Virus record (IMG/VR): IMGVR_UViG_3300010371_000029
Coordinates: 62,001 to 126,000 of that record
From: a virus
DNA length: 64,000 nucleotides
Direction: 5' to 3' (one strand)
Below, one piece after another: positions 9,662 through 32,591 of this stretch; within the stretch, counting starts at the first letter, position 1, and the number at the start of each line of letters is the position of its first letter. The notes beneath the pieces are model-generated. The model was not told the DNA's origin. It did no database searches and worked only from the letters and a program-made list of their open reading frames with translations. The position numbers were made by a program, and so were the translations under genes.

Positions 9662-10294
9662 CTAACTATTAAAATTTATTTTTGGTTGTATTTTACGAGC
9701 GATTGTTAGGAATTTAATTAAAATCTGAGCCGTTATTTTTACATCTACCAACGCATCATGCAAATTACCTATTGATTCTATTTTCATATAATCCTTTAAT
9801 GTGCCAAGTTTTAGATTCGGTACTGCTTTAGAATTTTCAAAGAAATAATTAGCCAAAAACAAAGTGTCATAAGGTATGAAGTAGAATAAAGCGGCCTCTC
9901 CCCTTTCCTTGTTCCAAGGCCCATATTTCTGACACATTTTGTTTATAAATTTACTGTCAAAGTTTACAATATTGTGCCCCGCTGGAATTGGACGGGTCCA
10001 GGCTTGCCCCGGCTTGTAATTAAAACGTTCTACGTATAGGGCGAAGTCTGCCCAAACTGTTTGAGGTAATGGTGCTGTTGAAAGCTTCTCTAATGAATGC
10101 CCGTTTATCTCTAAGGCTTTAGGGTCGGCGGTCTCAGGCGTTAAAGGACGAATTAAAGAATTGAATTCAGAGTTAGGAATAATTGTAAGATTCTTAGAAT
10201 TGATTGCTACTGCGGCGATTTGAACTATTTCGTGTTTTTCATGGTCCAGACCGCTTGTTTCCACATCGTAGCACACGATTGTATTGTAATTCAT
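9662..10294 (-). CDS. DnaQ-like 3'-5' exonuclease (DEDDh)
   Basis: A 210-residue protein with the exonuclease motifs in order: Exo I CYDVETSG, Exo II AGHNIVNFDSKF, and Exo III NLHDALVDVKIT with the DEDDh histidine. It probably proofreads for the split polymerase III alpha subunit, since it lies between the two halves. Start ATG at 10294 overlaps the small ORF before it by 4 bases. Confidence 0.9.
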   Translation of the reverse strand: MNYNTIVCYDVETSGLDHEKHEIVQIAAVAINSKNLTIIPNSEFNSLIRPLTPETADPKALEINGHSLEKLSTAPLPQTVWADFALYVERFNYKPGQAWTRPIPAGHNIVNFDSKFINKMCQKYGPWNKERGEAALFYFIPYDTLFLANYFFENSKAVPNLKLGTLKDYMKIESIGNLHDALVDVKITAQILIKFLTIARKIQPKINFNS

Positions 10295-10542
10295 TTTTCC
10301 TCAGGAAATATGTCGATTGGCCCGTTGTATTCATGACATTTATTCTCCCAATGTATTATTGTGTCTTCAATTGTAGCTTGAAAAGAGTTATTAAAATAAT
10401 TTTTTGAACCTATTAAAATTACATCATATTTTACTAATTTTTTCTCCTTATCTATAGAAAGAACACGAAATATATAGAAACTATCTTGGAAATATTTAGG
10501 AAAAGGCCATTTAGACCGTGTGATTTTTAGAAGTCGCTGCAT
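10291..10542 (-). CDS. LLKITR-tag family small protein (1)
   Basis: The 83-residue protein begins MQRLLKITRSKWPFPKYF, the M-x-x-LL(K/R)(I/L)TR signature shared by nine genes here. The rest has beta-rich segments (FYIFRVLSIDKEKKLVKYD) and ends with a helix and NGPIDIFPEE, closely resembling the next gene (TGPLDVF). It is one of three tandem copies between the polymerase halves, next to the exonuclease. Function unknown. Confidence 0.75.
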   Translation of the reverse strand: MQRLLKITRSKWPFPKYFQDSFYIFRVLSIDKEKKLVKYDVILIGSKNYFNNSFQATIEDTIIHWENKCHEYNGPIDIFPEEK

Positions 10543-10833
10543 TTAGAATCTTTCAATTCTAGTATAATTCTTCTGTGCTTCTTTATAACTACTCCCAAAA
10601 ACATCTAAAGGACCGGTATATTCGTTATATTCCTTTCCCCATCTTGCCTCAAATATGTCTATCCTGTCTCTAAAGCCCGAACAGTAATAACCTTTAGCTC
10701 TCCAAGGAGTTCTTTTATACATACCGTCGTAATAAATCATTCCGTCTTTACGGAACAATATTCTAAAGATGAAGTCGCTAGACTCAAAATATGTGGGCAA
10801 CTTAAAACGGGTTATTCGTAGTAGTTGATTCAT
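10543..10833 (-). CDS. LLKITR-tag family small protein (2)
   Basis: A 96-residue paralogue beginning MNQLLRITRFKLPTYFE. It shares with its neighbours a strand-rich middle (FIFRILFRKDGMIYYDG), a helix (FRDRIDIFEARWGKEYNEY) and the TGPLDVF ending. It overlaps the copy before it by 31 bases and is followed by the third at one base spacing. Codons for the tag differ from the other copies (CTACTACGAATAACCCGT), so the tag is kept at protein level. Function unknown. Confidence 0.75.
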   Translation of the reverse strand: MNQLLRITRFKLPTYFESSDFIFRILFRKDGMIYYDGMYKRTPWRAKGYYCSGFRDRIDIFEARWGKEYNEYTGPLDVFGSSYKEAQKNYTRIERF

Positions 10834-11080
10834 CGGGAAAATTTGGTATTTCGTTTGGTGGGCAGTCTTTTATTCCGTAATAACTATTATCATTATATAA
10901 GTTTAAAAAGGTAGATAATCTATCTTCCCAATTTGTAGGACAAGGTTTATTTTCTTTTATATAAAATACATTATAATAAACAACTCCGTCTATTATATCA
11001 TTAATACGATAATAGCATTGGCTACATTTCAAATATTTAGGGAGAATTTGAGTTCTCGTTAATTTAAGTAATGCCTGCAT
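10802..11080 (-). CDS. LLKITR-tag family small protein (3)
   Basis: A 92-residue paralogue beginning MQALLKLTRTQILPKYL, with CYYRINDIIDGVVYYNVFY and a C-terminal helix (WEDRLSTFLNLYND). Its ATG lies 17 bases inside the end of the N-terminal polymerase gene, so it starts exactly where that half polymerase stops. No known domain is recognised. Confidence 0.72.
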   Translation of the reverse strand: MQALLKLTRTQILPKYLKCSQCYYRINDIIDGVVYYNVFYIKENKPCPTNWEDRLSTFLNLYNDNSYYGIKDCPPNEIPNFPDESTTTNNPF

Positions 11081-12833
11081 TGACCATCTCGCTCGCCATT
11101 TGAATTTTATCTAAAATAGCAACTCCAAGCACATCAAATTTTACTAAACCCGCCGCCTCGCCGGAGGATAAATCATATCCGCAAATCATTTCGCCCGTTC
11201 GTTCATCCAAAATCATAGGGGCGACTGTATCAAGAGGTTCCGAAGATATGACCAAACCACACGCATGTCGGCTTTTATTAACGAGGGTTCCTTCAAGGGC
11301 TATAGCTTGTTTGAAGTAATCGGCGTATTCCCCGACTATATCATTTCCTTCTAATTGGGCCAATCCCTCAAAATCCTCTGGTTTATGTTCTAAGCACCAC
11401 CGTATAATGGAGGAATCCCCGGTTTCTTCCTCCATTTCTTGCAAGTCGCCCATTATACGTTGTTCGTCTGGGATGCCACGGGTTAAATTATTAATCTCCT
11501 CGAATGATAAGGCACCATAAGCGCGAATTACCGCTTTTAGGGCGGACCTTCCTTGTAATCGTCCGAACGTTACTATTTGTGATACTTTATCCCTACCATA
11601 TTTAGTGCGAATATATTCAATAACGCTGTCGCGTCCAGATACCGGAAAATCAGTATCTATATCGGGGAGTGCAACTCTATCTTTCGTGTTACGCCCCGCG
11701 TTATAGAACCTCTCAAAATATAGACCGTACTCGATAGGGTCGCAACTAGTAATACCTATTAAATAAGCAGTGAGACACCCACTAACACTACCTCTACCCA
11801 CCCCAGGAAGTTGCCCCTGAGATTCGGCATATCGTATGTAATCTTCCACAATTAAGAAATAATCTGCCAGCCCAGCATTCTCAAAAACTTCAAGTTCGTG
11901 CTTAATTCTTTCTACATATTCTCCCTCTTTTTCTACAGATATTATCCCTTTTATTTTATTTCTCCAACCCGCCCGGCATAATTCCCTAAGTTGTTCATTA
12001 GGTTCGGCCACCGGAAATTTGGGCAACAACGTTTTACTAAGAATGGAAAAGGTTTCACAGCGGTCAGCTATTTGGGCCGCGCCGGCTATTTCTTGTTCTG
12101 ATAGAACTTTCCTTACCTCATCTTCTCCCCGGAAATGATTGGTTCCTTTAGGAACCTTATCTATCGTCACACCTAAATCATTAGCAAGTATTACTCGATG
12201 GTTTATATCATCTTCTGGTTCGCAGTATAGACAATTAAACAGTCCCACGGTTTGTAATTTAAGTTCAGAGGCGGTTTCCCGCATTATATCAGCGGTAAGC
12301 TCACAATCGCCGTCTACCCCCAGATAGAACCTGTCCCCAAAAATATCCCGAAATAGATTACTTTCTTTAATTAAATCTTCTTTAAAATCCGATTTTAAAG
12401 CTTGTTTAAGACTCCAGGGGTCCGAACCGTAATACGGTCCATCGAATAGGATAGCTCCTATGGAACTATCTCGGTATCCATTTATACAAATCAACCCTTT
12501 GGAATAGTTAGAAAGAATTTCATGTGTAGCTTGCGGCTCTTTCTTAAAATTCTCAGGTTTATTACTTTGGGATACAATTTTTAATAAATTTTTGAACCCG
12601 GCAAGTGTACTCGCCAATAATAGTACGGTGGGACCTCCCATTAGGGCTTGTTCCAACCCAAAGATTGGCTTAACCCCCTTTTTCTGCGCCGACTGATAGA
12701 ATTCTACCGCCCCTGATAGTGAGTTTAAATCGGTTAGAGCGACAGTTTCGCCCTTTTCAATTAGGGCATCTGGTGGACTTAGACCATAATTCAAACTGTA
12801 GAAAGAATGGTTACGTAGGTTTATAAACTTCAT
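11064..12833 (-). CDS. dnaE: DNA polymerase III alpha subunit, N-terminal half (split gene)
   Basis: The 589-residue product starts at ATG 12833 (MKFINLRNHSFYSL), the usual PHP-domain start of DnaE. It contains GVGRGSVSG, the catalytic pair in LPDIDTDFP, and the third aspartate in LVKFDVLG, and stops about 20 residues later. The PHP motif is degenerate (RNHS instead of HxHS). The fingers and OB domain are in the gene at 7061. The break lies in a linker of the normal protein, so the pieces could form one enzyme. Between them lie three LLKITR genes, the exonuclease and an HNH gene. Confidence 0.93.
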   Translation of the reverse strand: MKFINLRNHSFYSLNYGLSPPDALIEKGETVALTDLNSLSGAVEFYQSAQKKGVKPIFGLEQALMGGPTVLLLASTLAGFKNLLKIVSQSNKPENFKKEPQATHEILSNYSKGLICINGYRDSSIGAILFDGPYYGSDPWSLKQALKSDFKEDLIKESNLFRDIFGDRFYLGVDGDCELTADIMRETASELKLQTVGLFNCLYCEPEDDINHRVILANDLGVTIDKVPKGTNHFRGEDEVRKVLSEQEIAGAAQIADRCETFSILSKTLLPKFPVAEPNEQLRELCRAGWRNKIKGIISVEKEGEYVERIKHELEVFENAGLADYFLIVEDYIRYAESQGQLPGVGRGSVSGCLTAYLIGITSCDPIEYGLYFERFYNAGRNTKDRVALPDIDTDFPVSGRDSVIEYIRTKYGRDKVSQIVTFGRLQGRSALKAVIRAYGALSFEEINNLTRGIPDEQRIMGDLQEMEEETGDSSIIRWCLEHKPEDFEGLAQLEGNDIVGEYADYFKQAIALEGTLVNKSRHACGLVISSEPLDTVAPMILDERTGEMICGYDLSSGEAAGLVKFDVLGVAILDKIQMASEMVNAGIT

Positions 12834-12916
12834 TTTTGTCCACTTATCATCCAGCACCAAGCCACAGTCGCGCAAATAACGGCTACAGCAGCAAACACAC
12901 ATTCAGGTGTATTCAT
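12830..12916 (-). CDS. tiny membrane peptide, 28 aa
   Basis: An ORF from ATG at 12916 to TGA at 12830 encodes MNTPECVFAAVAVICATVAW plus eight residues, a single hydrophobic helix. It overlaps the gene before it (CTATGA) and the polymerase start after it (ATGA), the coupling style used throughout the window. That fit is the main evidence. Function unknown. Confidence 0.45.
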   Translation of the reverse strand: MNTPECVFAAVAVICATVAWCWMISGQK

Positions 12917-13110
12917 AGATTCTCTATATCCACGATAAGTTGTTTGAACATATTTTTAATATTAGTGAACATATCCGGTATTATATTTTCTATCCCCTGA
13001 ATCTTTTGTTTAATTTTATTCTTAATTTGTAGAATTTTCTTTTTTGCTAGATAGATAGCGCCTCCTCCACCAATTACTATTCCTAGAAAAAAAGCGAGTA
13101 TCGCTAACAT
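12913..13110 (-). CDS. small membrane-anchored protein
   Basis: The 65-residue protein has an N-terminal transmembrane helix with a glycine run (LAFFLGIVIGGGGAIYLAKKK) and a basic amphipathic tail (ILQIKNKIKQKIQG). The topology is likely tail-in-cytoplasm. It overlaps the macrodomain gene by 7 bases. No family recognised. Confidence 0.6.
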   Translation of the reverse strand: MLAILAFFLGIVIGGGGAIYLAKKKILQIKNKIKQKIQGIENIIPDMFTNIKNMFKQLIVDIENL

Positions 13111-13586
13111 GCTTTCGCCACCTTTTTGTTAATTACTATAAATCTATCATCAAAGACTTGGTTTAATTCTGGTCCTATATCTTTCCAGTCTAATCCTCCT
13201 AAACCACAACCAAGTCTAGGTAACAAAATTCTGGTCCACTGAAGAACATTGGCCACTCCCACTAATTGACGGGCCATATCTAATATTAAACCGGGCGAAC
13301 TAGGCTTGCGCCAATCGTACTTAGTGGGGAAACCAACGACATAGGGGGAATGCTCTCCTAGTAAATCGGTAAATTTATTAACTAAAATAGTGGGGACTTT
13401 GAGTTTTTGAATAGCCGCGCCCCACACTAGGTCAATATCTTTAATAGCCGTTTTAAAATCTAGGGCTAATCCGGCCCCCATTACTAATCTACCGTCAGAT
13501 TTAACTATTAAATTAATGGGACAGACCAGTGCATTGTTTCTAGAATCCGCCCCTTCAATCCAAATATTACCTTCTTGCTCTAACAT
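13104..13586 (-). CDS. macrodomain protein (ADP-ribose binding)
   Basis: The 160-residue protein spans one macrodomain. It has the nucleotide-binding loop VMGAGLALDFK near residue 35, an internal VVGFPTKYDW, and the conserved LLPRLGCGLGGLDW, as in Poa1p/ALC1-type domains. Such proteins bind or hydrolyse ADP-ribose derivatives. In a phage this could erase ADP-ribosylation imposed by a host defence or process NAD-derived signals, but that is inference. Confidence 0.85.
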   Translation of the reverse strand: MLEQEGNIWIEGADSRNNALVCPINLIVKSDGRLVMGAGLALDFKTAIKDIDLVWGAAIQKLKVPTILVNKFTDLLGEHSPYVVGFPTKYDWRKPSSPGLILDMARQLVGVANVLQWTRILLPRLGCGLGGLDWKDIGPELNQVFDDRFIVINKKVAKAC

Positions 13587-13603
13587 AATTTTCCTATTTA
13601 GTT

Positions 13604-14149
13604 TTATCTAAACTGCTGTGTCCAAAAACCACTATAGCCACCAACACCAATTCGAGTAAAGTTAGGGTTTAATAGATTAGCCCTATGTCCCGGCGAATTA
13701 TACCACGTCCTCGTGACGTTTTCCGGGTTTGGCTGTCCTTGTGCAATATTTTCTCCAGCCCATCCTCCCGTTCCCCCATGCCTAAAACCGTAAACGTGTC
13801 TCATATTATAACAGTGGCGATTAGCGGTAATCTGTAGGGCTCGGTCTGGAATAAGTGGTCGTAACCCATGCAACGCGCGGTAAAAATTGGCCCATCGAAC
13901 CATTTGAACTTCTTCGTGAGTATAAAAGGACCAACATACTATAGGATTCTTTATTACTCCGCCTTCTTGGTAGTCCCCACTTACATTAACTTGTTCGCCC
14001 CAAAGCTCTTCTAGACTCTTTTGTGGTATATCGAGTTTATACGAACCAACATTATCAACTTTAAGTCGCGGGCCGTCAGTGTCTTTATAAAGTGTTCCAC
14101 TCTGAGAAAACGGTACGGTTAAAGCGATAATTAAAAGCAATACTTGCAT
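13604..14149 (-). CDS. secreted CAP-domain (SCP/PR-1-like) protein
   Basis: A 181-residue protein with a signal peptide (MQVLLLIIALTVPFSQS) and a CAP domain: MVRWANFYRALHGL, CYNMRHVYGFRHGG, WAGENIAQG and WYNSPGHRANLLNPNFTRIGVG. These are the usual CAP signatures with putative metal-binding histidines. It is exported; the role of CAP proteins in phages is unknown. Possibly it is a cell-envelope or virion factor. Confidence 0.85.
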   Translation of the reverse strand: MQVLLLIIALTVPFSQSGTLYKDTDGPRLKVDNVGSYKLDIPQKSLEELWGEQVNVSGDYQEGGVIKNPIVCWSFYTHEEVQMVRWANFYRALHGLRPLIPDRALQITANRHCYNMRHVYGFRHGGTGGWAGENIAQGQPNPENVTRTWYNSPGHRANLLNPNFTRIGVGGYSGFWTQQFR

Positions 14150-14159
14150 TATTTACTCC

Positions 14160-14423
14160 TTACTTAGATACAGTTTCCTTAACTTCTTCAGCTTTGCTCT
14201 TGTATAGATATTCCGGTATGTCCAGTTCTACAAACTCGGAAAAATCGTCGTGGTCGTAATATTGAGCCGCGCCCAATACTTGAATGTTCTTAAATTTAGT
14301 TCCGTCAAACCAAGCAATATGGGGCGTTCCATCGGCAGGCCCAAGTCCCTTTCCTTCCTTAACATAGACGTAATAGGGGCCTTCGCGAAGAGTCAAACCG
14401 TTTCCAAGGTCAACAGTATTCAT
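14160..14423 (-). CDS. hypothetical protein, 87 aa
   Basis: The start is taken at ATG 14423, which forms an ATGA overlap with the LLKITR gene before it; an earlier in-frame ATG at 14441 lies inside that gene. The product is acidic and beta-rich (LTLREGPYYVYVKEGKG, HIAWFDGTKFKNI), with an acidic C-terminal helix. No family is recognised. Confidence 0.65.
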   Translation of the reverse strand: MNTVDLGNGLTLREGPYYVYVKEGKGLGPADGTPHIAWFDGTKFKNIQVLGAAQYYDHDDFSEFVELDIPEYLYKSKAEEVKETVSK

Positions 14424-14629
14424 ATCCAATAATCTCCACATTCTAAACCTTTAGTAATAACATAAATTGAGTAATCAGTAGTATAAACTGTCCCACTCCA
14501 TTTTGATAATAATCTACATTTAACATAACCTCCTTTAAATTCAATAATCGTAATATAATAATATTGAGATTCAAAATTAAGAGGAATTTCATTCTCGGAT
14601 GGTCTAGTTATCCTTAATAATTCTAACAT
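14420..14629 (-). CDS. LLKITR-tag family small protein (4)
   Basis: A 69-residue protein beginning MLELLRITRPSENEIPLNF, followed by alternating strands (YYYITIIEFKGGYVKCRLL). It is the shortest copy and lacks the C-terminal helix of the others. It lies 3 bases after the Dam-type methyltransferase gene. Function unknown. Confidence 0.72.
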   Translation of the reverse strand: MLELLRITRPSENEIPLNFESQYYYITIIEFKGGYVKCRLLSKWSGTVYTTDYSIYVITKGLECGDYWI

Positions 14630-14632
14630 GTT

Positions 14633-15436
14633 CTAGAACTCATAGTTTGCCCATACAGCTTCTAATCGCCTTTGTTTAGTAGAACCGGTAGCTGAATTAT
14701 TCGGCAACTCGAATACTCGTTGAGGCTTACCGTATAGAGCCTCGTAAAGTTCGCTCTGATAACCACTTAGGAGAAATCTCCCTCTAATTTTTCCTAAAAC
14801 GTCCGCAAGGACTTCATGCTCCTCTTTAGTCATTTCATGTCTATAGACCTTACGGGCACCCTTGGCCCTAGTTTCTGGGAGGTAGGGCGGGTCAATATAA
14901 TAAAAAACGTTTTCGGCGTCGTATTTTTGAATAATATCGGTCGCTAAATCGTGTTCGATTTGAATGGTTCTGAACCGTTCTATTACTTTGGGGAGGTTCT
15001 CATCAATACTGGAAAGCCAGCCAGAAACAACGTCGGCCATGCCCGCGCGAGAGCGTTGAAGAGAATAGGACCAGGATTCGCCCATTCCTGAGATTGATTG
15101 TCTAAATTCAACATATGTGCTTACAGCACGTTCAATAGTATTAGATTTTTCAGATTCCTTAGCATCTTCAAAAATTTTTTCCGAATAGAGTGTTAAACTG
15201 AGTTGACGGGTAAATTCCTGAGGTTCACATTTAAGAACTGTGAATAACTCAAACAATCGTTCGTCAATATCATTATAAACTTCGAGTCTAGACGGCTCTT
15301 TGTTTAACAGGACAGAACCCGCCCCACCATAGGGCTCCACGTAAATTTCTGTGGCCCCAATTAGGGGTAGAAGGTGTTTGACCATGTAGTATTTTCCGCC
15401 AAACAGCTTGAATGGCGGCCGTATCCTTGTGCTCAT
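14633..15436 (-). CDS. D12-class adenine-N6 DNA methyltransferase (Dam-like)
   Basis: The 267-residue protein has the D12-class motifs: motif X/I region PPFKLFGGKYYMVKHLLPLI, IYVEPYGGAGSVLLNK, and the catalytic FYYIDPPY near residue 190. It transfers a methyl group from SAM to adenine N6; target site unknown. It is full length and uninterrupted, unlike the second D12 enzyme at 17778, which holds an intein at the same catalytic motif. Confidence 0.92.
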   Translation of the reverse strand: MSTRIRPPFKLFGGKYYMVKHLLPLIGATEIYVEPYGGAGSVLLNKEPSRLEVYNDIDERLFELFTVLKCEPQEFTRQLSLTLYSEKIFEDAKESEKSNTIERAVSTYVEFRQSISGMGESWSYSLQRSRAGMADVVSGWLSSIDENLPKVIERFRTIQIEHDLATDIIQKYDAENVFYYIDPPYLPETRAKGARKVYRHEMTKEEHEVLADVLGKIRGRFLLSGYQSELYEALYGKPQRVFELPNNSATGSTKQRRLEAVWANYEF

Positions 15437-15498
15437 ACATACATAATAGAGCTAGATGGGGACTTTATCAAGTTGCTTTCAGCAACCTAGAAAGATTT

Positions 15499-17279: not shown

Positions 17280-17788
17280 ACTATAACTTTACCTAATCTA
17301 CTAAAATTATCTCTAAATCTATCTGGCCTATTTCCCCAATATATAAATGCACAAGCCATAGGAGCACCTTTTTTAACTATTTCTCCGTTATAATAAAATT
17401 TAATCCTAGGTGTTCTAATAAAACATATAGCCGCCGCCGAATAAAATATTATTTCCCAATGTTTTGTATTAGTGGCAACTGGTATAAGTGCTATAACTTC
17501 TGAACCTGTATTATTAGCCTCTAAACATTTATTAATCCAATCCTTAATAGTGGTTTTATCTAAATTCCGCCCATATGGGGGGTTAACGAATATGGTCCGC
17601 GCAAAAGACCAATCTTTATTTAAACCATTATTTTCTTTATTAAAATGAAAGGTTGCTGGGACCGTTGAATAGTCGTTTGAGCAAGGGTCCAAGTCTATAT
17701 AACCAAATACATTTAGGATTAATTTTATATATTCTGGAGGAGTATTCCAATCCTTATTTTTAGAGACTGATTCTCTATTAATTGTCAT
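17270..17788 (-). CDS. phage DNA N6-adenine methyltransferase (Phage_Dam family)
   Basis: A 172-residue protein with the PF05869-type layout: WNTPPEYIKLI, IDLDPCSNDYSTVP, FVNPPYGRN (catalytic NPPY) and LIPVATNTKHW. It methylates adenine N6 in DNA using SAM. Its family differs from the two D12 enzymes nearby, so three adenine methyltransferases lie within 5 kb. Confidence 0.9.
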   Translation of the reverse strand: MTINRESVSKNKDWNTPPEYIKLILNVFGYIDLDPCSNDYSTVPATFHFNKENNGLNKDWSFARTIFVNPPYGRNLDKTTIKDWINKCLEANNTGSEVIALIPVATNTKHWEIIFYSAAAICFIRTPRIKFYYNGEIVKKGAPMACAFIYWGNRPDRFRDNFSRLGKVIVCL

Positions 17789-19565
17789 AAATAAACAGTC
17801 TCTCTATTCCTTCCTTTGACCCCGTATCCTTTGTTAGACTGCTCGTAACTCGCTTCTCCCAAACACACTTAAAGTCGCTAGGAGCCACATATTCGCTCAC
17901 GAATACGTTCGCTTTGCAAGCAACTTTTCTTGTCCATTCCCAAAATTCGTCGGAGTTGAATCCACCTTTATAAGGGGTTGTACCTCTGTAAGGAGGGTCA
18001 CAATTATGAACCAAAATATTGCTAACATTAAACAAATCATCTTTATCTACGTCTAAATCAAAAACTTCTCCTTCATAAGGAATTTCATTTATACCTCTAA
18101 TTCTTGTTAAGATATGGTTATTTATTATCCGACGAGAACTTCTAAATTTAATTGCTGGAACTTCATATCCTAATTTTATTATATCTTCAGATGCAAAATA
18201 AATATCAAAAATTCTTCCCGCTCTTCTTTTTATAGATGGTTTAAGACCACATCTTAGTGCAATAGTATACATTTGTTCAGCTAATTTAGGACTTACTGTG
18301 CTTCCACATAATTTAGCTCTATTCCTTTCATATATTTCTAAACCTCCATCCCCCCTTAACCATCCTTTAAGGATTTCTATTTGATAATTTATTGGAAATG
18401 TCAATATATTATCATTTAGAGCTTTAAAATGTGCTGTACCAGTTATATAATCGTATAAAAATTTGGCGGCAACGGTAGAGTGTAATCTAACTTGAGCAAC
18501 AGATTGCCAAGGCATTTCTTTAACAATAGCTTCTACGCCAAACGCAGTTTTTATACAATGACAAGCATCTGCTACCCATGTATCTAATTCATCCATACAA
18601 AAACTTAGTAATATAGAATTTGGTATTCCATTAGCAAATTGTGAATGCCCCTCCGCTAAATAATAACCAAAAAATCTAAATAATTCACTGCAAATGTTTA
18701 ATATTGGATATTTTTGTATGAAAGGTGAATAATATTCTTTATTAATTTCCAAATCTACAGGATTTTCAATTCCTCCTAACGGAATTAAAACATAATCTCC
18801 TATTTTTAAATCACTAGCTCGGGTTGCTTTTTTCATGCTCCATAAATCTTCATTTGTTCTAAAATCTTGTCTTTTTTCAATATTTCTGCCGGGTATAGAA
18901 ATAATTCTATGTTCTGGAGTAACTTCTATTTTATCTATAAGCCCTTGAATCTTTAATGATAATAAATTCCCTCTATATATTTTAGACATTTTATTTAAAA
19001 CACGTCTACCTCCGTGAAGAACATCATTTATCTGTATGTCTTTAATTTCTTTAAATTTTTCATCAATAGTTTTTATTTTAGCGTTGGGTGGTAAGCAATA
19101 ACAAAGTGACCCTGTGGGAATCGGGAGGGACTTATAATCGTAATTAGTGAAAAATACATCTGTCAAATTGGGCACTTGAGCCATAATATTTCTATAGGCT
19201 TCCGCCCCGTAATTTCGCTTTCCTTGTCCATCACGGGCATATCCGCTCCACCACTTGCCGGAATAGCTTAGATTAAAACCCGTATACCCAATTTCAGCGG
19301 CCGAATAACATTCTTGATTATAATGGATATTATTATATTCTTCTTCACTAACCTCTTCTGGGGGAACCCATCCTCCTTGGAGCGCTTTCCACATTTCAAT
19401 TAAATGAAAATGTTTATCGTTACCAATCCTAGGACCTTTAACCTTATCAATCATATTCGCGCCGCCCACGAATGGCTCGACCCACAACTGGCCTTCTTTT
19501 CTATATGGGTCTATGACCGCAAGAATTTCTTTTGCATGACGAGCTTTGGAACCTTGATACTTCAT
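17778..19565 (-). CDS. D12-class adenine methyltransferase interrupted by an intein
   Basis: The start is ATG 19565 (MKYQGSKARHAKEILAVI), the typical D12 beginning, in an ATGA overlap with the gene before; an upstream start at 19598 adds 11 residues. Motif I is WVEPFVGGANMID. An intein of 365 residues splits the protein directly before the catalytic DPPY: the spliced exteins read GSLCY-CDPPYRGTTPY. Without splicing the catalytic site cannot form, so activity depends on protein splicing. Confidence 0.92.
   Translation of the reverse strand: MKYQGSKARHAKEILAVIDPYRKEGQLWVEPFVGGANMIDKVKGPRIGNDKHFHLIEMWKALQGGWVPPEEVSEEEYNNIHYNQECYSAAEIGYTGFNLSYSGKWWSGYARDGQGKRNYGAEAYRNIMAQVPNLTDVFFTNYDYKSLPIPTGSLCYCLPPNAKIKTIDEKFKEIKDIQINDVLHGGRRVLNKMSKIYRGNLLSLKIQGLIDKIEVTPEHRIISIPGRNIEKRQDFRTNEDLWSMKKATRASDLKIGDYVLIPLGGIENPVDLEINKEYYSPFIQKYPILNICSELFRFFGYYLAEGHSQFANGIPNSILLSFCMDELDTWVADACHCIKTAFGVEAIVKEMPWQSVAQVRLHSTVAAKFLYDYITGTAHFKALNDNILTFPINYQIEILKGWLRGDGGLEIYERNRAKLCGSTVSPKLAEQMYTIALRCGLKPSIKRRAGRIFDIYFASEDIIKLGYEVPAIKFRSSRRIINNHILTRIRGINEIPYEGEVFDLDVDKDDLFNVSNILVHNCDPPYRGTTPYKGGFNSDEFWEWTRKVACKANVFVSEYVAPSDFKCVWEKRVTSSLTKDTGSKEGIERLFIYDN
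18003..19097 (-). mobile_element. intein with LAGLIDADG endonuclease in D12 methyltransferase
   Basis: It begins CLPPNAKIKTIDEKFKEI and ends NILVHN before the Cys of CDPPY, about 365 residues. Block B is VTPEHRIISI. LAGLIDADG-like motifs are FRFFGYYLAEGHS and LKGWLRGDGGL. All splicing residues are present (Cys1, His, Asn, Cys+1). The insertion at the catalytic motif is typical of an intein that is hard to delete imprecisely. Confidence 0.92.
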
Positions 19566-19759
19566 GGAGAAACATCCATGTCCCGCGAAGAATTCCAAAT
19601 TTCACGCCCGCTTGGATTTTTAATTATCACCATAGCGGTCCAACCATGCTTTTTAAAAACATTTTTAGCGGCGGTTAATGCTTCATCTAGACCAAAATGT
19701 TGACTATCTTCATAATACGTAGCATCCTGAAAGGCAACTATTACTTTAAAACTTCCCAT
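19562..19759 (-). CDS. hypothetical protein, 65 aa
   Basis: The start is placed at ATG 19759 (MGSFKVIVAFQDATYYED); the frame is open 12 bases further. It resembles a small alpha/beta fold (ALTAAKNVFKKHGWTAMVII). It ends in an ATGA overlap with the intein-bearing methyltransferase and overlaps the Nudix gene by 14 bases. Family unknown. Confidence 0.65.
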   Translation of the reverse strand: MGSFKVIVAFQDATYYEDSQHFGLDEALTAAKNVFKKHGWTAMVIIKNPSGREIWNSSRDMDVSP

Positions 19760-25594: not shown

Positions 25595-25822
25595 TTAATG
25601 AATTGTTATACTTATTCCTAACTCTTTTGCGATTGCTAGCAATCGCTGACGCTTCTCTTCTAACTCACAATCCGGCTGACCCGTTTTCTTATCATATTCT
25701 TTAGCTTTTTCATAAATTCTATAGAAATCTTCAATATCAGTACCGGTAACAGTTTTACCCTCTTCTAGTCGTTTCATCCATCCTTCTGAATAGGAATCCA
25801 TTATGAAAGAAACTGCGCACAT
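25595..25822 (-). CDS. hypothetical protein, 75 aa
   Basis: The start is ATG 25822 in a TAATG overlap with the gene before; the frame is open to 25861. The product (MCAVSFIMDSYSEGWMKRLE ...) ends with a basic helix (EEKRQRLLAIAKELG). No family recognised. Confidence 0.6.
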   Translation of the reverse strand: MCAVSFIMDSYSEGWMKRLEEGKTVTGTDIEDFYRIYEKAKEYDKKTGQPDCELEEKRQRLLAIAKELGISITIH

Positions 25823-26873: not shown

Positions 26874-27264
26874 ATGCGGCTCTAATGATTTGTTGCCAGT
26901 TTTCTTCCTGGTCCCAGGGCAAAATTGCTAATTTAATCCCATTAAGTTCGCAAAGTCTTTTCTTTTCAGAATCTCGTTTAAGGGAAGCCCGGAAGCCCCC
27001 CATATTTCCATGAAAACGTTCACAGTACACGAAATGTTGCTGTCCGTGAACTTCAACGCCAAGCCGTTCGGACGGCAAGAAAAAGTCAAGGTAAAGAGAA
27101 GTAGAAGCACCCGGCAAGTGTACTTCTTCAGCCGCTATGCAGAAAGGAAAGAGACGTTTTAGTAACGTCCTGCAAATGATATGTGGGCGGCTTTTTAATC
27201 GTTCAAGGTTTGTTTTAGGAAGGGACAACCGATATTCGCGGCCATCTAAACCTTTAAATTTTAT
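26863..27264 (-). CDS. Vsr/DUF559-like PD-(D/E)XK endonuclease, probable ATA start
   Basis: The core LYLDFFLPSERLGVEVHGQQHF, then LKRDSEKKRLCELNGIKL, is that of small Vsr/DUF559-type nucleases (D, E-x-Q catalytic pattern). A TTG start at 27228 gives 121 residues. The frame upstream encodes KFKGLDGREYRLSLPKT, which resembles the N-terminus of related phage nucleases as I recall them. The only start there is ATA 27264 with GAGAGG 6 bases upstream. Likely role: DNA nicking in recombination or repair. Confidence 0.75.
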   Translation of the reverse strand: MKFKGLDGREYRLSLPKTNLERLKSRPHIICRTLLKRLFPFCIAAEEVHLPGASTSLYLDFFLPSERLGVEVHGQQHFVYCERFHGNMGGFRASLKRDSEKKRLCELNGIKLAILPWDQEENWQQIIRAAYDN

Positions 27265-27481
27265 GAGGGGCCTCTCTATTTAACCATTCTATAAATTTAT
27301 CTAAATACTCCCAACTTTCTGGTTGCCCCTCTGGTACAGAAAAAGATTTATGATGATTATATCCATATACAACATTATCTTTTATTCTAGTTATAGTTAC
27401 AAAATCTACACCTGTTTTAAAAACATATGTACCAATTAAATCAGAATAATTTGGTCTAGTTATTTTGAGTAAATTATACAT
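27254..27481 (-). CDS. LLKITR-tag family small protein (5)
   Basis: A 75-residue protein beginning MYNLLKITRPNYSDLIGTY. The body (VFKTGVDFVTITRIKDNVVYGY) matches the next copy (LIGTY/IIGTY and VVYGY/RIYGF), so these two are recent tandem paralogues. It ends with a helix (WEYLDKFIEWLN). It lies between the Vsr-like nuclease and recA. Function unknown. Confidence 0.75.
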   Translation of the reverse strand: MYNLLKITRPNYSDLIGTYVFKTGVDFVTITRIKDNVVYGYNHHKSFSVPEGQPESWEYLDKFIEWLNREAPHKI

Positions 27482-27702
27482 TAACTAATTTTCCAAATTC
27501 TACCACTTTTTAAAAGTCTGTGAAATTCTTCTAAAGTGGCCGACCTTTTTAAATCTGGACTGTTACTATGAAATCCATAAATTCTTTCATTATCTACGTT
27601 TTGAATAATTAGGTCCACGCCATATAATGCAAGTAGATTTGACCGATAAGTCCCAATAATTGAATCCCTAGGATTCCTAGTTAATTTTAATAAGGCGTTC
27701 AT
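27481..27702 (-). CDS. LLKITR-tag family small protein (6)
   Basis: A 73-residue paralogue starting MNALLKLTRNPRDSIIGTY, with VDLIIQNVDNERIYGFH and a C-terminal helix (LEEFHRLLKSG). It shares one base with its neighbour and overlaps recA by 4 bases, so it is co-translated with recA. Function unknown. Confidence 0.75.
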   Translation of the reverse strand: MNALLKLTRNPRDSIIGTYRSNLLALYGVDLIIQNVDNERIYGFHSNSPDLKRSATLEEFHRLLKSGRIWKIS

Positions 27703-28748
27703 TTAAATAAACTCAACAACTTTCCATAAATTATATCGGTTTCATCCGGGTTTTCTTTAAGATAAATGCGGAACTTTTCTTCGCCCTGAAACTTCTGCTC
27801 AACGCCAGCGGCGTCTTTGTGTTTGAACCATGCCCCACTTAATTCCACCACCCCATATTCTTTGGCACACCCTATAATCTCACTAATCGTATCCACACCT
27901 TCACCGTACCGAATTATCATTTCGGGCTTTTGGAAAGGAGGGCCTAGGGAACAACAGTGAACTTCCCAATGAACCCTTTGACCTATAGGGGCTTCCCCCT
28001 CTTTTTTAGAGATTTTTTCCATATAGGTGGCTTCAAGCTTAGTATCGGCTTGGTAAGCTATGGCAAAGCCTCCCTTCTCTGTTCTAGTTTTCCCCTTACC
28101 TGATGGATTTCCCATCATTTGGGTAATAGCTACTACGAAATTTTTATTTACCGGGAGTATCTGGGCAACTTCCTGGCAAAATTTGCTTAAGAGCGAATTA
28201 ACCTCGGCTCGTCGTCCAGCTTCCCCAAAGTCAGACTTTTCCCCAGTTGACCTAGGTGTGAGCATGGGTATGGAATCTATAATTAATACGCAACCGTGGT
28301 CATTCTTTAAAAAATCCAATCCCATCCCTAAGTAATCTTCGGCATAATAAATTACTGGTTCGCCATTAGGAAATTCTTCAGTGGGGGGGAGCTTGTGGGA
28401 ACGAATTAAGTGAAATTTATCAAAATCAAATCCCGCCCAATCTAAATTCTTCTTAGAAATTCTTCCTTCCACGTCAATGTAATAAATGGTCCGCCCACCA
28501 TATTCGGGCTTTTGGCAATTTGCGGCGAACTTTAGCGCTAAGGTACTTTTGCCCATCTTGGGCATACCGGTTAAAGTAATCCAAGAGCCTTCTTGCGCGC
28601 CTCCATATATTGATATATCAATAGCTGGAGTCATAGGTACAATCATAGGGGGCGATTCCATCACCTTGCGAGGGTCAGTAAAAACGCCGGTCCCATATTT
28701 TTTTAGGATTGACTTATGAGCTTCTTCAGAAAGGGATTTCTGTATCAT
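27699..28748 (-). CDS. recA: RecA/UvsX-like recombinase
   Basis: The start is taken at ATG 28748 (MIQKSLSEEAHKSILKKYG), which leaves a 23-base overlap; the frame is open to 28799. Walker A GMPKMGKSTLALK, Walker B CVLIIDSIPML, and the RecA-type loop VVAITQMMGNPSGKG are present. It catalyses strand exchange in phage recombination and replication. LLKITR-tag genes flank it on both sides. Confidence 0.9.
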   Translation of the reverse strand: MIQKSLSEEAHKSILKKYGTGVFTDPRKVMESPPMIVPMTPAIDISIYGGAQEGSWITLTGMPKMGKSTLALKFAANCQKPEYGGRTIYYIDVEGRISKKNLDWAGFDFDKFHLIRSHKLPPTEEFPNGEPVIYYAEDYLGMGLDFLKNDHGCVLIIDSIPMLTPRSTGEKSDFGEAGRRAEVNSLLSKFCQEVAQILPVNKNFVVAITQMMGNPSGKGKTRTEKGGFAIAYQADTKLEATYMEKISKKEGEAPIGQRVHWEVHCCSLGPPFQKPEMIIRYGEGVDTISEIIGCAKEYGVVELSGAWFKHKDAAGVEQKFQGEEKFRIYLKENPDETDIIYGKLLSLFK

Positions 28749-28986
28749 CTGGAACCGATTTGTTATATAATCTTTTTGGTAATTCAAAATAAGGTCCAAA
28801 TATTTCAGAACTAAAATCTTCTAAACAAAAAAATCTATGTGAACCATCAATAGTTAATAAAACAGTGAAATCTTCAATATTTATATCTTCCACAGTATAA
28901 ATATACTCTTGTCTATAAATAGAATCACCAATTTGGACAGGAAAATCAAGTTTGGGCGGTCTAGTAATTTTTAACAATTCTTTCAT
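28726..28986 (-). CDS. LLKITR-tag family small protein (7)
   Basis: The 86-residue protein begins MKELLKITRPPKLDFPVQI, then has strand-rich segments (IGDSIYRQEYIYTVEDI, FTVLLTIDGSHRFFCL). It precedes recA and overlaps it. It is most like copy 8 in the IG(D/T) stretch after the tag. Function unknown. Confidence 0.75.
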   Translation of the reverse strand: MKELLKITRPPKLDFPVQIGDSIYRQEYIYTVEDINIEDFTVLLTIDGSHRFFCLEDFSSEIFGPYFELPKRLYNKSVPDDTEIPF

Positions 28987-29384
28987 AAATCTAAAGACTT
29001 TTTCCCAAAAGTTGGTCTAGGTGGTTCTACCTGAGGTAAGGAAATTTCTGTAGTTTCAATATTATTTTCTTTACATATTAAATACTTACGTAGTTGTGGA
29101 TTTTTAAGAGAAAACAATTTAACTCGGGCGGTTATACATGATTTAATCCCATTAATTAGGGTCGAAGACTCATATTTTTTTAATAGACGGTCGGCCAAAG
29201 TTTTCTGATAAACAAAAGTTTTAGTCCATTTGGGGCTCTGCCAAAATTTGGTGGGCAACCTTTCATTCCTATGGGCGGCCACACATTCACATACTAATTC
29301 GGCCGCATATTGGGAGGGGGTTACAAAGGTGTCGGGAGAATAACGGGACTTGTATTTAGAAAGTTCAGAACGTTCATTTGCCAT
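28983..29384 (-). CDS. hypothetical protein, 133 aa
   Basis: A basic protein (MANERSELSKYKSRYSPDTF; SPKWTKTFVYQKTLADRLLKKY) with no motif recognised. It overlaps its neighbours by 1-4 bases. A nucleic-acid role is possible from charge and its position beside recA. Confidence 0.65.
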   Translation of the reverse strand: MANERSELSKYKSRYSPDTFVTPSQYAAELVCECVAAHRNERLPTKFWQSPKWTKTFVYQKTLADRLLKKYESSTLINGIKSCITARVKLFSLKNPQLRKYLICKENNIETTEISLPQVEPPRPTFGKKSLDL

Positions 29385-29593
29385 TAGTTCAACTCAGCTT
29401 CATCTTTTAGTTCATTTTCTCTAAATTTAAGTATTAAATGTCCAATTTCAATTAATAATTCTAAGGGAGCAATTTCAGCCATTGCTTCAATAAATGAACG
29501 TAAGAAAACTTCTCCAAATCTATCCCTATTTTTAGCGTCTTCCAAATATTTTTTAAAATCATTAAGATTTCTTAGAGATTCATAATCTGACAA
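29384..29593 (-). CDS. hypothetical protein, 69 aa
   Basis: A small acidic helical protein (NDFKKYLEDAKNRDRFGEVF, EIAPLELLIEIGHLILKF). It overlaps the genes on both sides. No family recognised. Confidence 0.6.
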   Translation of the reverse strand: MSDYESLRNLNDFKKYLEDAKNRDRFGEVFLRSFIEAMAEIAPLELLIEIGHLILKFRENELKDEAELN

Positions 29594-29990
29594 TTAAGTT
29601 TTCCTTACATTCTTCCATAGACCTTTTAGTGGTCTCTACCACTATTAATTCAGGGACCCGATAAAACTCAATGGAGATTTCATTTCCTTCTAAAGTACCG
29701 ACCCCCCATCTGTGGACCGTATTTATCGGACTAGCTAAGATAGAGTAGGTGAACCAATAGCCCGCTGACGCGGGCAAATTTATAATATGGGACCTAAATT
29801 GGAGTTTAAAAGATTCAATATATAGAGTGTTTAGTTCACAATATTCTTTTAATCTTACCCAAGAATTCCTAGGATTAATACCTGGGATATTATCATTTCT
29901 AAAAACTACCTGTCCATTAGATAGTCTAGCCACCCATCGCAAATCTTCTAAATATGGATTTTTGGCATCTGTACAAATTAATTTACACAT
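29580..29990 (-). CDS. hypothetical protein, 136 aa
   Basis: A beta-rich protein (RWVARLSNGQVVFRNDN, YIESFKLQFRSHIINLP, GYWFTYSILASPI). It looks like a conserved small phage protein, but I cannot name the family. It overlaps the next upstream gene by 13 bases. Confidence 0.68.
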   Translation of the reverse strand: MCKLICTDAKNPYLEDLRWVARLSNGQVVFRNDNIPGINPRNSWVRLKEYCELNTLYIESFKLQFRSHIINLPASAGYWFTYSILASPINTVHRWGVGTLEGNEISIEFYRVPELIVVETTKRSMEECKENLIVRL

Positions 29991-30292
29991 TTAGTGGTGC
30001 AATTCTTAATCCTATCTGTGGGTTCGCCCTGATTTACATGAAGAACCTTACGAGCATCATCAATTTCGGCCGATTTAGCCTCAGTCATTACAACATACCC
30101 TTTACCAGTTTCGGGCTTGGGTTGCTCCGAAACTTTAGGAAGGGTGTCATAAAACGCCCGCACTTGCTTTTGGCTTCGGCTTAATTGGTCCGCCACAGCC
30201 GGAAGCATTCGTTCCAAAGCGTTCCCGTTCAAGTGTGCCAATTCGTTCTGAATCACTTCCTTTTCTTTCTTACTTAATTGTCCGCGCTTCAT
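29978..30292 (-). CDS. hypothetical protein, 104 aa, helical
   Basis: A basic, helical protein (MKRGQLSKKEKEVIQNELA, MLPAVADQLSRSQKQVRAFYD), which may include a helix-turn-helix in its first 50 residues. No family recognised. Confidence 0.65.
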   Translation of the reverse strand: MKRGQLSKKEKEVIQNELAHLNGNALERMLPAVADQLSRSQKQVRAFYDTLPKVSEQPKPETGKGYVVMTEAKSAEIDDARKVLHVNQGEPTDRIKNCTTKCVN

Positions 30293-30639
30293 TACATTCT
30301 CCTATTTGCTTGGTTATAATAGGCAACATTACCAGTTTTAATAAACGACATATAAAGGTCGAACGTATCCTTATCAACCTTCACATACTCATAATAGCCT
30401 CGCCGACTCGAAACATCAACCGCATTTAAACCTTTGTCATTAACTCCGTTTGGATTGTATAAATTTCCCTTCTGGGAACCCATCGTACTTGCTTTAATAA
30501 AATAATTAGATAGATTACTATATTTTTCTACCTTGCAAAGGGCTTTATCGTCCTTAGATGCTACCACCTGTCCGCCCCAAACGTATTCGAGGATAGTCGT
30601 TGTTTCTTTTAAATCTCCCACCCCAAACGTCTCATTCAT
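30292..30639 (-). CDS. hypothetical protein, 115 aa
   Basis: The start is ATG 30639 (MNETFGVGDLKETTTILEYV), giving an 8-base overlap with the zinc-ribbon gene; the frame is open to 30702 within that gene. It contains WGGQVVASKDDKALCKVEK and a positively charged centre. No family recognised. Confidence 0.65.
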   Translation of the reverse strand: MNETFGVGDLKETTTILEYVWGGQVVASKDDKALCKVEKYSNLSNYFIKASTMGSQKGNLYNPNGVNDKGLNAVDVSSRRGYYEYVKVDKDTFDLYMSFIKTGNVAYYNQANRRM

Positions 30640-30937
30640 ATATCTTTTCTCCCTTAACTGCCGTAACTTGTATTCTATTCTCAGTAGAGTCAATACTATC
30701 AATAGCCGTAAAGGCCGTGCAACCTAGATGGAACGTCCCCTTAATTATTTTCTCGAAAGAACTATCACCACAGTATGGGCAATTACATTTTGCTATAGTC
30801 TCAACCTTATTTTGCGGGCCAGTTATGAAGAAATCTACAAGTGGACAGCCGCAATTTGAACATTCTAGTATTACGTGCCCCCCATCAGAAATATTTGGGT
30901 TGGGGTCGCGGATACGCTCGTCAGAAGAAAGTTTCAT
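30632..30937 (-). CDS. zinc-ribbon protein, 101 aa
   Basis: Two Cys clusters (CSNCGC and CNCPYCG) form a zinc ribbon in the first half, followed by a beta-rich tail (TENRIQVTAVKGEKI). Likely a nucleic-acid or protein adaptor. It overlaps the LLKITR gene before it by 4 bases. Confidence 0.68.
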   Translation of the reverse strand: MKLSSDERIRDPNPNISDGGHVILECSNCGCPLVDFFITGPQNKVETIAKCNCPYCGDSSFEKIIKGTFHLGCTAFTAIDSIDSTENRIQVTAVKGEKIYE

Positions 30938-31215
30938 ATAATATCGCCTTTAAAGACTTCTGGATAAAGTTTATATAACGGTAAACCGTCTTTTTGTAAG
31001 CCAAAATAACAAATATATATACTAATTCTATCACTAACACCTTTTATATTATCATATATTAATGCATCTAATACCTTATTGGTTCTTCTAATATATATAG
31101 CAGAATCTACATAATAATCTATATGAGAATAAGCTTCTAGGAAAACTTGTGTTCCTATTTGAAGAGGTAATCCTAAAAATTTATCTGGACGAGTTATTTT
31201 TAATAACTGTTTCAT
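30934..31215 (-). CDS. LLKITR-tag family small protein (8)
   Basis: A 93-residue protein beginning MKQLLKITRPDKFLGLPLQI, with strand-rich segments (IDYYVDSAIYIRRTNKVL) and a helix-like SDRISIYICYFG. It overlaps its neighbours by 4 bases at both ends. Function unknown. Confidence 0.75.
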   Translation of the reverse strand: MKQLLKITRPDKFLGLPLQIGTQVFLEAYSHIDYYVDSAIYIRRTNKVLDALIYDNIKGVSDRISIYICYFGLQKDGLPLYKLYPEVFKGDII

Positions 31216-31442
31216 TTTAAATCCTGGCGGGCTCGCCGGCCATCCTTAGGGCCACCAGTCTTCTTTTTAAGGGCATCTAGGGCTTCTCCCGCTAACAACC
31301 GGGCCGACTCTAAACTAAATGTTTCTATGTGAAACTGCTGCATCGGAATAGATTCGACCGAATCCCCATACTCCCCCCCCGGCAGCCCCTTGAATATTTG
31401 GGCGTGAACTTGAATTATAACAAGATGTTTTACGTCTGCCAT
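31212..31442 (-). CDS. hypothetical protein, 76 aa
   Basis: A small alpha/beta protein (MADVKHLVIIQVHAQIFKG) with a C-terminal basic tail (KKKTGGPKDGRRARQDL). AAGGAG lies well upstream of the ATG. No family recognised. Confidence 0.62.
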   Translation of the reverse strand: MADVKHLVIIQVHAQIFKGLPGGEYGDSVESIPMQQFHIETFSLESARLLAGEALDALKKKTGGPKDGRRARQDLK

Positions 31443-31458
31443 GTTCTATATTATCTCC

Positions 31459-31737
31459 TTATCCTTTATTTCTTCGTGGGCAGCCGTAAACCAATAAAGC
31501 ACGTATAGCTATAGCCGACACTTTTCTTAATACGTCTCTAGCCTGTAAATCGGAAGGATTATCAGTCCAAGCTTCTTGAGCCCTTCGTGTATAAACCCCC
31601 AAAGTGACTAATTGTCCTTCAACCCCATAATCTTCCTTATCAGCCCGGCCAATTTCAGATAACTTGGAAATATAATCAAGTTCTTCATCAATCGCTGATA
31701 TAACTTCTGGAGTAAGTTTTAGCTCTACATTTTTCAT
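31459..31737 (-). CDS. conserved phage hypothetical protein, 92 aa
   Basis: A helical protein (LTPEVISAIDEELDYISKLS) ending with VLRKVSAIAIRALLVYGCPRR. This C-terminal pattern is common in small uncharacterised phage proteins (LRKVAA-A-R----HG-P-R type). Function unknown. Confidence 0.65.
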   Translation of the reverse strand: MKNVELKLTPEVISAIDEELDYISKLSEIGRADKEDYGVEGQLVTLGVYTRRAQEAWTDNPSDLQARDVLRKVSAIAIRALLVYGCPRRNKG

Positions 31738-32135
31738 ACTATTTTTCCTTCATGGACATATTTTTGTTTCTGCTCCGGGCTCATTCCAGCTATTTTCTTT
31801 AAACGTTTAATCTTTTCTTTACCTAGAGGAGCCTCCTTTTTTAGCCGCCGCATACCGGGCGGCAATTTACTTGACGACTTTTTAATTCGTTTTTCCGCAT
31901 CCTGTCTAATCTTCTCCTCTAAACCATATCGACCCAATTTTTTAGTGTTCTCCTCTGCTAATTTACCCACTGTGGTAGGATTTCCATTAATAATGATGCC
32001 CACCCCCGAGTAAACCCGGAATAAAGTATTTTTACCACAACCGGGGCATTTTTTGAGGGGTTTATAATCCGCAATAGACGAAACTTGTTCCAATTGGTGC
32101 TTACACGCACCACATTCATATTCATATCGAGGAAT
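31734..32135 (-). CDS. FmdB-like zinc-ribbon protein, probable ATT start
   Basis: The first NTG start in frame is TTG 32093, but the codons before it encode PRYEYECGACKHQLE, exactly the FmdB-type N-terminus (M-P-x-Y-E-Y-x-C-x-x-C). The only start there is ATT 32135, with AAGGAG 8 bases upstream, giving 133 residues. The ribbon is completed by KKCPGCG. A basic C-terminal region follows (IKKSSSKLPPGMRRLKKEA). Its role in phage regulation is unknown. Confidence 0.78.
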   Translation of the reverse strand: MPRYEYECGACKHQLEQVSSIADYKPLKKCPGCGKNTLFRVYSGVGIIINGNPTTVGKLAEENTKKLGRYGLEEKIRQDAEKRIKKSSSKLPPGMRRLKKEAPLGKEKIKRLKKIAGMSPEQKQKYVHEGKIV

Positions 32136-32147
32136 ATATCACACTCC

Positions 32148-32591
32148 TTAAAGAGGCCCACTCCAGGGACCCTGTGGATAATTTCTTATTAATTCGTAAC
32201 GATTTTCTATAAAAACTTCATTTCGGTTCAAAACCTGGCATCTTATACCATTTCGTCTTAGCCACATAGTTAAGTCTAATCTGCCAAAAATTCTAAAACT
32301 ACGGCCCTGATGCCTTGTGGCTAATTTAAGTAAGGCCCACTTCTTAAATATATGGTGGTAATCGCGCAAACGCGAACCACAGTATGTTTGAAGATAATAA
32401 CTATCCTGACTTCCTCTTACAACTTGAACAAAGTTCAAATAACGTTGTCTTATTCTGAAAGAGTTAGTATCAGGGTCATCCTGTAAGGTAAATAGATAAT
32501 CGCCCACATGAATATTAGTTTGGGGATATCTATAGAAATTTGGAAAATCAAGTTCAATGGGTGGTCTAGTAATCCTAAGCAAAGCTTGCAA
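32148..32591 (-). CDS. LLKITR-tag family protein (9), longest copy
   Basis: The start is TTG 32591, with GGAG upstream, inside the end of the transferase gene before it. The product begins MQALLRITRPPIELDFPNF and is 147 residues, longer than other copies. It has IHVGDYLFTLQDDPDTNSF and a basic C-terminal half (SRLRDYHHIFKKWALLKLA). Function unknown. Confidence 0.75.
   Translation of the reverse strand: MQALLRITRPPIELDFPNFYRYPQTNIHVGDYLFTLQDDPDTNSFRIRQRYLNFVQVVRGSQDSYYLQTYCGSRLRDYHHIFKKWALLKLATRHQGRSFRIFGRLDLTMWLRRNGIRCQVLNRNEVFIENRYELIRNYPQGPWSGPL

What the first reader, a model, noticed from the sequence alone, without database searches (positions are those of the whole stretch)
10291..32591. 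A family of nine small proteins sharing an N-terminal M-x-x-LL(K/R)(I/L)TR tag
Seen: genes at 10291, 10543, 10802, 14420, 27254, 27481, 28726, 30934 and 32148 all begin with M-x-x-L-L-(K/R)-(I/L)-T-R, most followed by Pro. The bodies (69-147 aa) diverge but share strand-rich segments and often a C-terminal helix. Codons for the tag differ freely between copies (CTTCTAAAAATCACACGG, CTACTACGAATAACCCGT, TTATTAAAAATAACTCGT), so selection acts on the peptide, not the DNA. Inference: the tag is a docking, targeting or processing signal read by one partner, and the bodies are variable effectors. They cluster around DnaE/DnaQ, RecA and a Dam-type methyltransferase. I know of no described family with this tag.
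Basis: partly seen in the sequence, partly recalled or inferred. Interest (0 to 1): 0.88.

Follow-up and report, generated by a model that had tools for sequence, protein, structure and literature searches.

The report
Phage protein family sharing N-terminal tag
An uncultivated phage carries about 27 genes or gene remnants for small proteins that all begin with almost the same nine amino acids while the rest of each protein has diverged nearly to noise, which suggests a shared docking or targeting label on a fast-changing set of small barrel-shaped proteins; what the label binds is unknown.

Summary
All nine genes carry M-x-x-L-L-(K/R)-(I/L)-T-R. The 130-kb phage contig holds 24 coding copies with that pattern (position 4 hydrophobic), a further copy without an ordinary start codon, two with degraded tags, and a pseudogene, all on the minus strand. 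The tag always sits at the extreme N terminus. Pairwise identity is 78% at tag positions 4-9 and 22% in the bodies (shuffled bodies 20%). Synonymous codons at Leu, Ile and Arg positions are randomised, so the peptide is what is kept. Tag-free bodies still link 15 of 22 into one family. Two structure models show a small beta-rich body with the tag as an unstructured extension; one resembles SH3-like barrels common among small phage proteins. At compact junctions of the replication operon, relatives have no such genes, or one untagged 58-60 aa gene instead. No copy was found in 55 related phage records, other collections searched, Pfam, PHROGs or NCBIfam. Best reading: an N-terminal docking motif joined by a linker to a fast-diversifying SH3-like domain. 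The closest working analogue is the T4 internal proteins with their capsid-targeting sequence; membership is not shown. The partner is unknown.

The parts
10291..10542 (-). tag gene MQRLLKITRS..., 83 aa; DnaE/DnaQ junction
   Evidence: body homologous to 10543 without the tag
10543..10833 (-). tag gene MNQLLRITRF..., 96 aa; DnaE/DnaQ junction
   Evidence: AlphaFold2 model mean pLDDT 72, tag without secondary structure
10802..11080 (-). tag gene MQALLKLTRT..., 92 aa; DnaE/DnaQ junction
14420..14629 (-). tag gene MLELLRITRP..., 69 aa; inside a 7-kb insertion between DnaE and a PD-(D/E)XK gene that overlap in a relative
27254..27481 (-). tag gene MYNLLKITRP..., 75 aa; downstream of RecA
   Evidence: flanking genes overlap or abut in relatives
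27481..27702 (-). tag gene MNALLKLTRN..., 73 aa; downstream of RecA
28726..28986 (-). tag gene MKELLKITRP..., 86 aa; upstream of RecA, C-terminal GPYF motif
30934..31215 (-). tag gene MKQLLKITRP..., 93 aa
32148..32591 (-). tag gene (TTG start) xQALLRITRP..., 147 aa, longest linker
   Evidence: HMM hit E 2.8e-8
9662..10294 (-). DnaQ-like exonuclease gene, syntenic flank
   Evidence: about 32% identical to relatives' genes
11064..12902 (-). DnaE N-terminal part, syntenic flank
   Evidence: 35-47% identical to relatives' genes over the aligned pieces; long branch in tree
27699..28799 (-). RecA-like gene, syntenic flank
   Evidence: 37-40% identical to relatives' genes

Best explanation
A lineage-specific multigene family of small phage proteins with three parts. 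(1) A short linear motif at the very N terminus, M-x-x-(L or another hydrophobic)-L-(K/R)-(I/L)-T-R, usually followed by Pro. (2) A linker of about 3-20 residues, often Pro-rich. (3) A small, fast-diverging beta-barrel domain, SH3-like in the better model, often with a C-terminal G-P-x-L motif. Shown: the motif, its position, its peptide-level conservation, the homology of most bodies, and gene gain and decay at gene junctions. Inferred: the motif docks every family member onto one common, slowly changing partner while the barrels diversify against changing targets. The likely setting is host take-over or counter-defence, because the genes sit in the minus-strand replication and accessory operons and the family behaves like an arms-race repertoire. 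Which partner reads the tag is unknown.
For: In 24 of 24 coding copies the start codon stands exactly two residues before position 4; L5, T8 and R9 are invariant and position 4 is always L or another hydrophobic; 19 of 24 have no alternative upstream start. Identity is 78% at tag positions 4-9, 16% at positions 2-3, 22% in the body and 20% for shuffled bodies. Leu, Ile and Arg codons of the tag match genome codon usage, which argues against recent gene conversion and against a DNA site; no flanking DNA motif stands out. Tag-free bodies link 15 of 22 copies; an HMM of the family finds 26 places in the contig. Two AlphaFold2 models (mean pLDDT 72 and 78.5) give beta-strands from about residue 14 on, with residues 1-13 without secondary structure and low confidence over residues 1-10. 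Foldseek with the second model gives SH3, Tudor and KOW-type domains (best E 0.15, probability about 0.9) and many 50-60 aa phage proteins (probability up to 1.00, TM by target up to 0.79). Tag genes lie at junctions where relatives' genes overlap or abut. Truncated copies and a pseudogene show birth and death. No protein outside the family starts with the tag.
Against: No partner, expression or interaction data. Seven of 22 bodies do not link to the rest once the tag is removed, and leave-one-cluster-out body profiles mostly fail, so a tag captured by several unrelated bodies is not excluded for those. The family is seen in a single genome, so conservation was measured among paralogues only. 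Diversification against changing targets is inferred from divergence; dN/dS could not be measured.
Confidence: 0.48

Rival explanations
1. Capsid-targeting: the tag packages each small protein into the prohead, as the roughly 10-residue capsid-targeting sequence of the T4 internal proteins does, and the bodies are injected as anti-restriction or anti-defence proteins.
For: Same architecture: T-even internal proteins are a diverse set with only a conserved targeting sequence in common (PMC3012670); the first 10 residues of IPIII are enough, with positions 4 and 7 most important for targeting (PMC9026906). Here positions 4 and 7 are hydrophobic in every copy. A 469-aa protein encoded just upstream of the capsid gene has a charged, repetitive C-terminal half that could be a head-assembly scaffold (by inspection).
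Against: The tag lacks the T4 cleavage motif L/I-x-E. pI runs from 4.5 to 10.6 and is not uniformly basic. No structural protein carries the tag. No prohead protease was recognised by Pfam or PHROGs. Genes lie among replication genes, which is not decisive.
Confidence: 0.13
2. N-terminal degron: the tag is read by a host AAA+ protease such as ClpXP, giving early phage proteins short lifetimes, as with lambda O.
For: ClpX reads signals at protein ends and lambda O is recognised through its N terminus (PMC7804408; PMC5415555). From memory, one N-terminal ClpX class is polar, T or hydrophobic, hydrophobic, basic, hydrophobic; residues 3-7 here (N/Q/E/S, L, L, K/R, I/L) fit in most copies.
Against: The motif class is loose and was not checked in the source paper. 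It explains neither invariant T8-R9 nor the frequent Pro10, nor why only this family carries it.
Confidence: 0.1
3. The tag is a structural element: an N-terminal strand that pairs with the barrel of a neighbouring copy, so that family members assemble with each other.
For: Alternating hydrophobic and polar residues L-K-I-T-R suit an edge strand; a shared swapped strand would explain conservation across bodies.
Against: Single-chain models leave the tag without secondary structure; complexes could not be modelled. The groove that receives the strand should also be conserved, yet bodies are at 22% identity.
Confidence: 0.15
4. Selfish or neutral gene family: small genes that duplicate into operon junctions, with the tag conserved only for translation or folding in cis.
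For: Insertion at junctions relative to relatives, truncated copies and a pseudogene, translational coupling by short overlaps.
Against: Synonymous codons in most tag positions are randomised, no shared flanking DNA, and 22 near-full-length open copies at saturation divergence imply long selection.
Confidence: 0.14

Closest known systems
T-even phage internal proteins (IPI, IPII, IPIII) with the capsid-targeting sequence
   Same: Several small, sequence-diverse phage proteins share only a short N-terminal peptide of about 10 residues; bodies evolve against host defences (PMC3012670, PMC9026906).
   Different: Different peptide, no L/I-x-E cleavage site, about 27 copies instead of three, apparently SH3-like bodies, packaging not shown.
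Small SH3-like phage proteins of 50-60 aa (BFVD hits; the DnaE-DnaQ junction gene of relatives)
   Same: Similar predicted barrel for the BFVD hits; for the junction gene, the same genomic slot.
   Different: The junction genes lack the N-terminal tag and linker; no sequence homology to the tag family was detected.
ClpX N-terminal recognition signals, such as that of lambda O
   Same: Short signal at the N terminus of an early phage protein.
   Different: Tag is longer and stricter (T8-R9, often Pro10); degradation not tested.

Membership tests
T4 internal proteins / capsid-targeting sequence | short conserved N-terminal peptide on sequence-diverse small proteins | tested here: met
   78% identity at tag positions 4-9 against 22% in bodies
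T4 internal proteins / capsid-targeting sequence | cleavage motif L/I-x-E at the end of the targeting peptide | tested here: not met
   positions 8-10 are T, R and mostly P; motif from PMC9026906
T4 internal proteins / capsid-targeting sequence | sequence match to a known phage protein family | tested here: not met
   no Pfam hit above cut-off and no good PHROG hit
T4 internal proteins / capsid-targeting sequence | present inside the virion and injected | not testable with these tools
   needs virion proteomics
SH3-like small beta-barrel | five-stranded barrel with a short 3-10 turn before the last strand | tested here: inconclusive
   strands and such a turn in the second model, pLDDT 78.5; SH3-like hits, probability about 0.9 but E 0.15 or worse; first model finds nothing
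ClpX N-terminal degron | ClpX-dependent degradation through the N terminus | not testable with these tools
   motif resemblance recalled from memory only
Anti-phage defence proteins (PADLOC) | match to a known defence model | tested here: not met
   0 of 22 members match
NCBIfam / PHROGs / Pfam families | match to a curated or clustered family | tested here: not met
   nothing above curated cut-offs; scattered single-member PHROG hits at E 0.006 or worse

The most novel reading that the evidence does not exclude
A modular phage repertoire in which one hub protein recruits about two dozen different SH3-like barrel proteins through one fixed N-terminal peptide, a plug-in scheme for diversifying host-interaction proteins that is unrelated by sequence to the T4 targeting sequence.
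Probability: 0.3. Interest if true: 0.8.

Novelty: new variant of a known kind. Interest (0 to 1): 0.6.

Why it matters
A nine-residue peptide kept across about two dozen paralogues whose bodies have diverged to the noise level is an unusually clean natural signal. If it is a docking or packaging label it names one testable partner and would give a second, independent case of the T4 scheme in which a phage keeps a label fixed and varies the payload. The family is absent from every collection searched, so ordinary annotation misses it.

Tried and rejected
DNA-level explanations: randomised codons at Leu, Ile and Arg positions and no flanking motif. Recent gene conversion of the tag: same codon evidence. 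Relatives elsewhere: DNA patterns of the tag in viral contigs and in bacterial and archaeal genome contigs gave unrelated open frames; the tag-based protein scan found none; one phage-collection tblastn gave one weak hit. The first profile scan of viral contigs failed for lack of conserved stretches. A single weak hit in G009 (E 0.007, contains a stop) and one in G031 (E 7e-4, 28 residues) were not taken as relatives. Homology to the relatives' DnaE-DnaQ junction genes: suspected from position and a similar pattern, but profile comparison gave probability under 1%; the same test also failed between clusters of the family itself, so it is insensitive. Shared N-terminal families as a common trait of this phage group: a search of ten related records found none apart from small families of two or three and low-complexity frames. 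Sliding-clamp peptides were considered and set aside on the motif (from memory). Literature searches found no described family; 'LLKITR' occurred once, in an unrelated proteomics paper.

Full report
What was checked. The nine reported genes are present and all begin with M-x-x-L-L-(K/R)-(I/L)-T-R. The window is bases 62,001-126,000 of a 130,268-bp virus record. A pattern search of the record gave 16 hits on the minus strand, none on the plus strand and none for the reversed pattern. A looser six-frame scan raised the count to 24 coding copies, two of them truncated (38 and 32 aa). Degraded ones are MYRLLKATRP at 874-1089, NNLLKLTRPP at 1082-1351 without an ordinary start codon, MREILKITAE at 126,447-126,701, and a pseudogene at about 59.2 kb that reads MYEMLRITRPKT and then many stops. 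All lie on the minus strand. The copies fall in three regions if the contig ends are neighbours (0.9-6.3 kb with 126-128 kb; 72-77 kb; 89-95 kb). That the ends are neighbours is an assumption.

The tag is a peptide feature. L5, T8 and R9 are invariant in 24 copies, K or R stands at 6, I or L at 7, and position 4 is always hydrophobic; positions 2 and 3 vary; Pro follows in 14. Leu, Ile and Arg codons agree between copies at 0.22-0.33, against 0.24-0.35 expected from the phage's codon usage, so synonymous sites are saturated. Lys is always AAA and Thr mostly ACT, which may reflect a preference near gene starts. The start codon is fixed: 19 of 24 have no other possible start between the previous stop and M1. 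No upstream or downstream DNA word exceeds shuffles in a way that marks a shared site; the commonest downstream words come from the next tag gene.

The bodies. Pairwise identity is 22% on average, 20% when shuffled. Even so, with the tag removed, about two dozen pairs pass a 5% false discovery rate and join 15 of 22 bodies into one group. Body-only profiles made without one cluster recover few members of it. A recurrent G-P-x-L near the C terminus is visible in the alignments. The safest statement is one ancient family for most copies, undecided for seven.

Structure. AlphaFold2 with the family alignment gave mean pLDDT 72 for 10543-10833 and 78.5 for the contig copy 5161-5409. Both show strands only from about residue 14, with the tag lacking secondary structure. 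The second matches SH3, Tudor, PWWP and KOW-type domains at probability about 0.9 but E 0.15 or worse, and many small uncharacterised phage proteins at probability up to 1.00 and target-normalised TM up to 0.79, E 0.025 or worse. I take an SH3-like barrel as likely, not proven.

Genomic setting. The capsid protein has at least 587 relatives in viral contigs, the best at about 70% identity, and none in the phage collection. DnaE sits on a very long branch, so no close relative is sampled. In two relatives the replication genes keep the same order. Where the window has two tag genes between RecA and the next gene, and one on the other side of RecA, the relatives' genes overlap or abut. Where the window has three tag genes between DnaE and DnaQ, both relatives have one 58-60 aa gene; most of 76 further relatives have a similar gene with an S-C-C motif, and some a different 72-96 aa gene. 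The tag genes are therefore additions, or replacements, at gene junctions. Homology between them and the junction genes was not detected.

Distribution. The family profile finds 26 places in this contig and none convincing in 55 related records. Tag patterns in viral and cellular contigs hit only unrelated frames. Records very near the window may be left out by the tools. Ten related phage records, mostly fetched in large part, show no comparable shared N terminus.

How it most likely works. A fixed N-terminal motif, a linker and a varying small barrel read naturally as a docking label on a diversifying set of interaction domains. The closest precedent is the T-even internal proteins, a diverse set that shares only its capsid-targeting sequence (PMC3012670), of which ten residues suffice (PMC9026906). 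The present tag lacks the T4 cleavage motif and the proteins are not uniformly basic, so it is not filed as a member. A degron read by ClpX is a second concrete option (PMC7804408), and a swapped strand a third. None can be decided from sequence. The statement about docking is inference; the conservation pattern is a result.

Novelty. No described family matches and no paper found describes the tag. The scheme of a fixed label on varying small phage proteins has a precedent, so I rate it a new variant of a known kind, with a fair chance that the label's partner makes it something new.

Noticed in passing
L129:15390-15566 (-), L138:10145-10327 (+) and L201-L280 between DnaE and DnaQ: A 56-66 aa gene with a strongly conserved S-C-C-(K/R/Q) motif and a V-G-x-x-F...G-x-E-Y-x-K pattern sits between DnaE and DnaQ in most of 76 relatives; no Pfam match for the two tested. 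A second small family occupies the slot in a sister group (L256, L259, L260, L263, L278-L280).
   Followed up: partly
window 7061-8626, 8607-9602, 11064-12902: DnaE is encoded in two pieces, with DnaQ and a gene resembling an HNH-type endonuclease between them; relatives also keep DnaE in two pieces around DnaQ.
   Followed up: partly
window 2961-5759, 17778-19598, 34577-38041, 56636-58660: Several proteins look interrupted by inteins: a glycosyltransferase, a Dam-type methyltransferase, a ribonucleotide reductase (LAGLIDADG domain found by Pfam) and a cysteine-peptidase-like protein.
   Followed up: partly
L016:7091-8095 (+): Likely major capsid protein with at least 587 relatives in viral contigs at up to about 70% identity and none in the annotated phage collection: a large phage group without sequenced isolates there.
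   Followed up: partly
L015:4011-4712 (-), L015:1344-2048 (-), window 13104-13586 (-): Accessory genes near or between tag genes: a circularly permuted YpsA SLOG-family protein, a haem-dependent oxidative N-demethylase-like protein and a macro domain.
   Followed up: no
window 42179-42248 (-): A tRNA found by Rfam (48 bits) that ARAGORN does not report.
   Followed up: no
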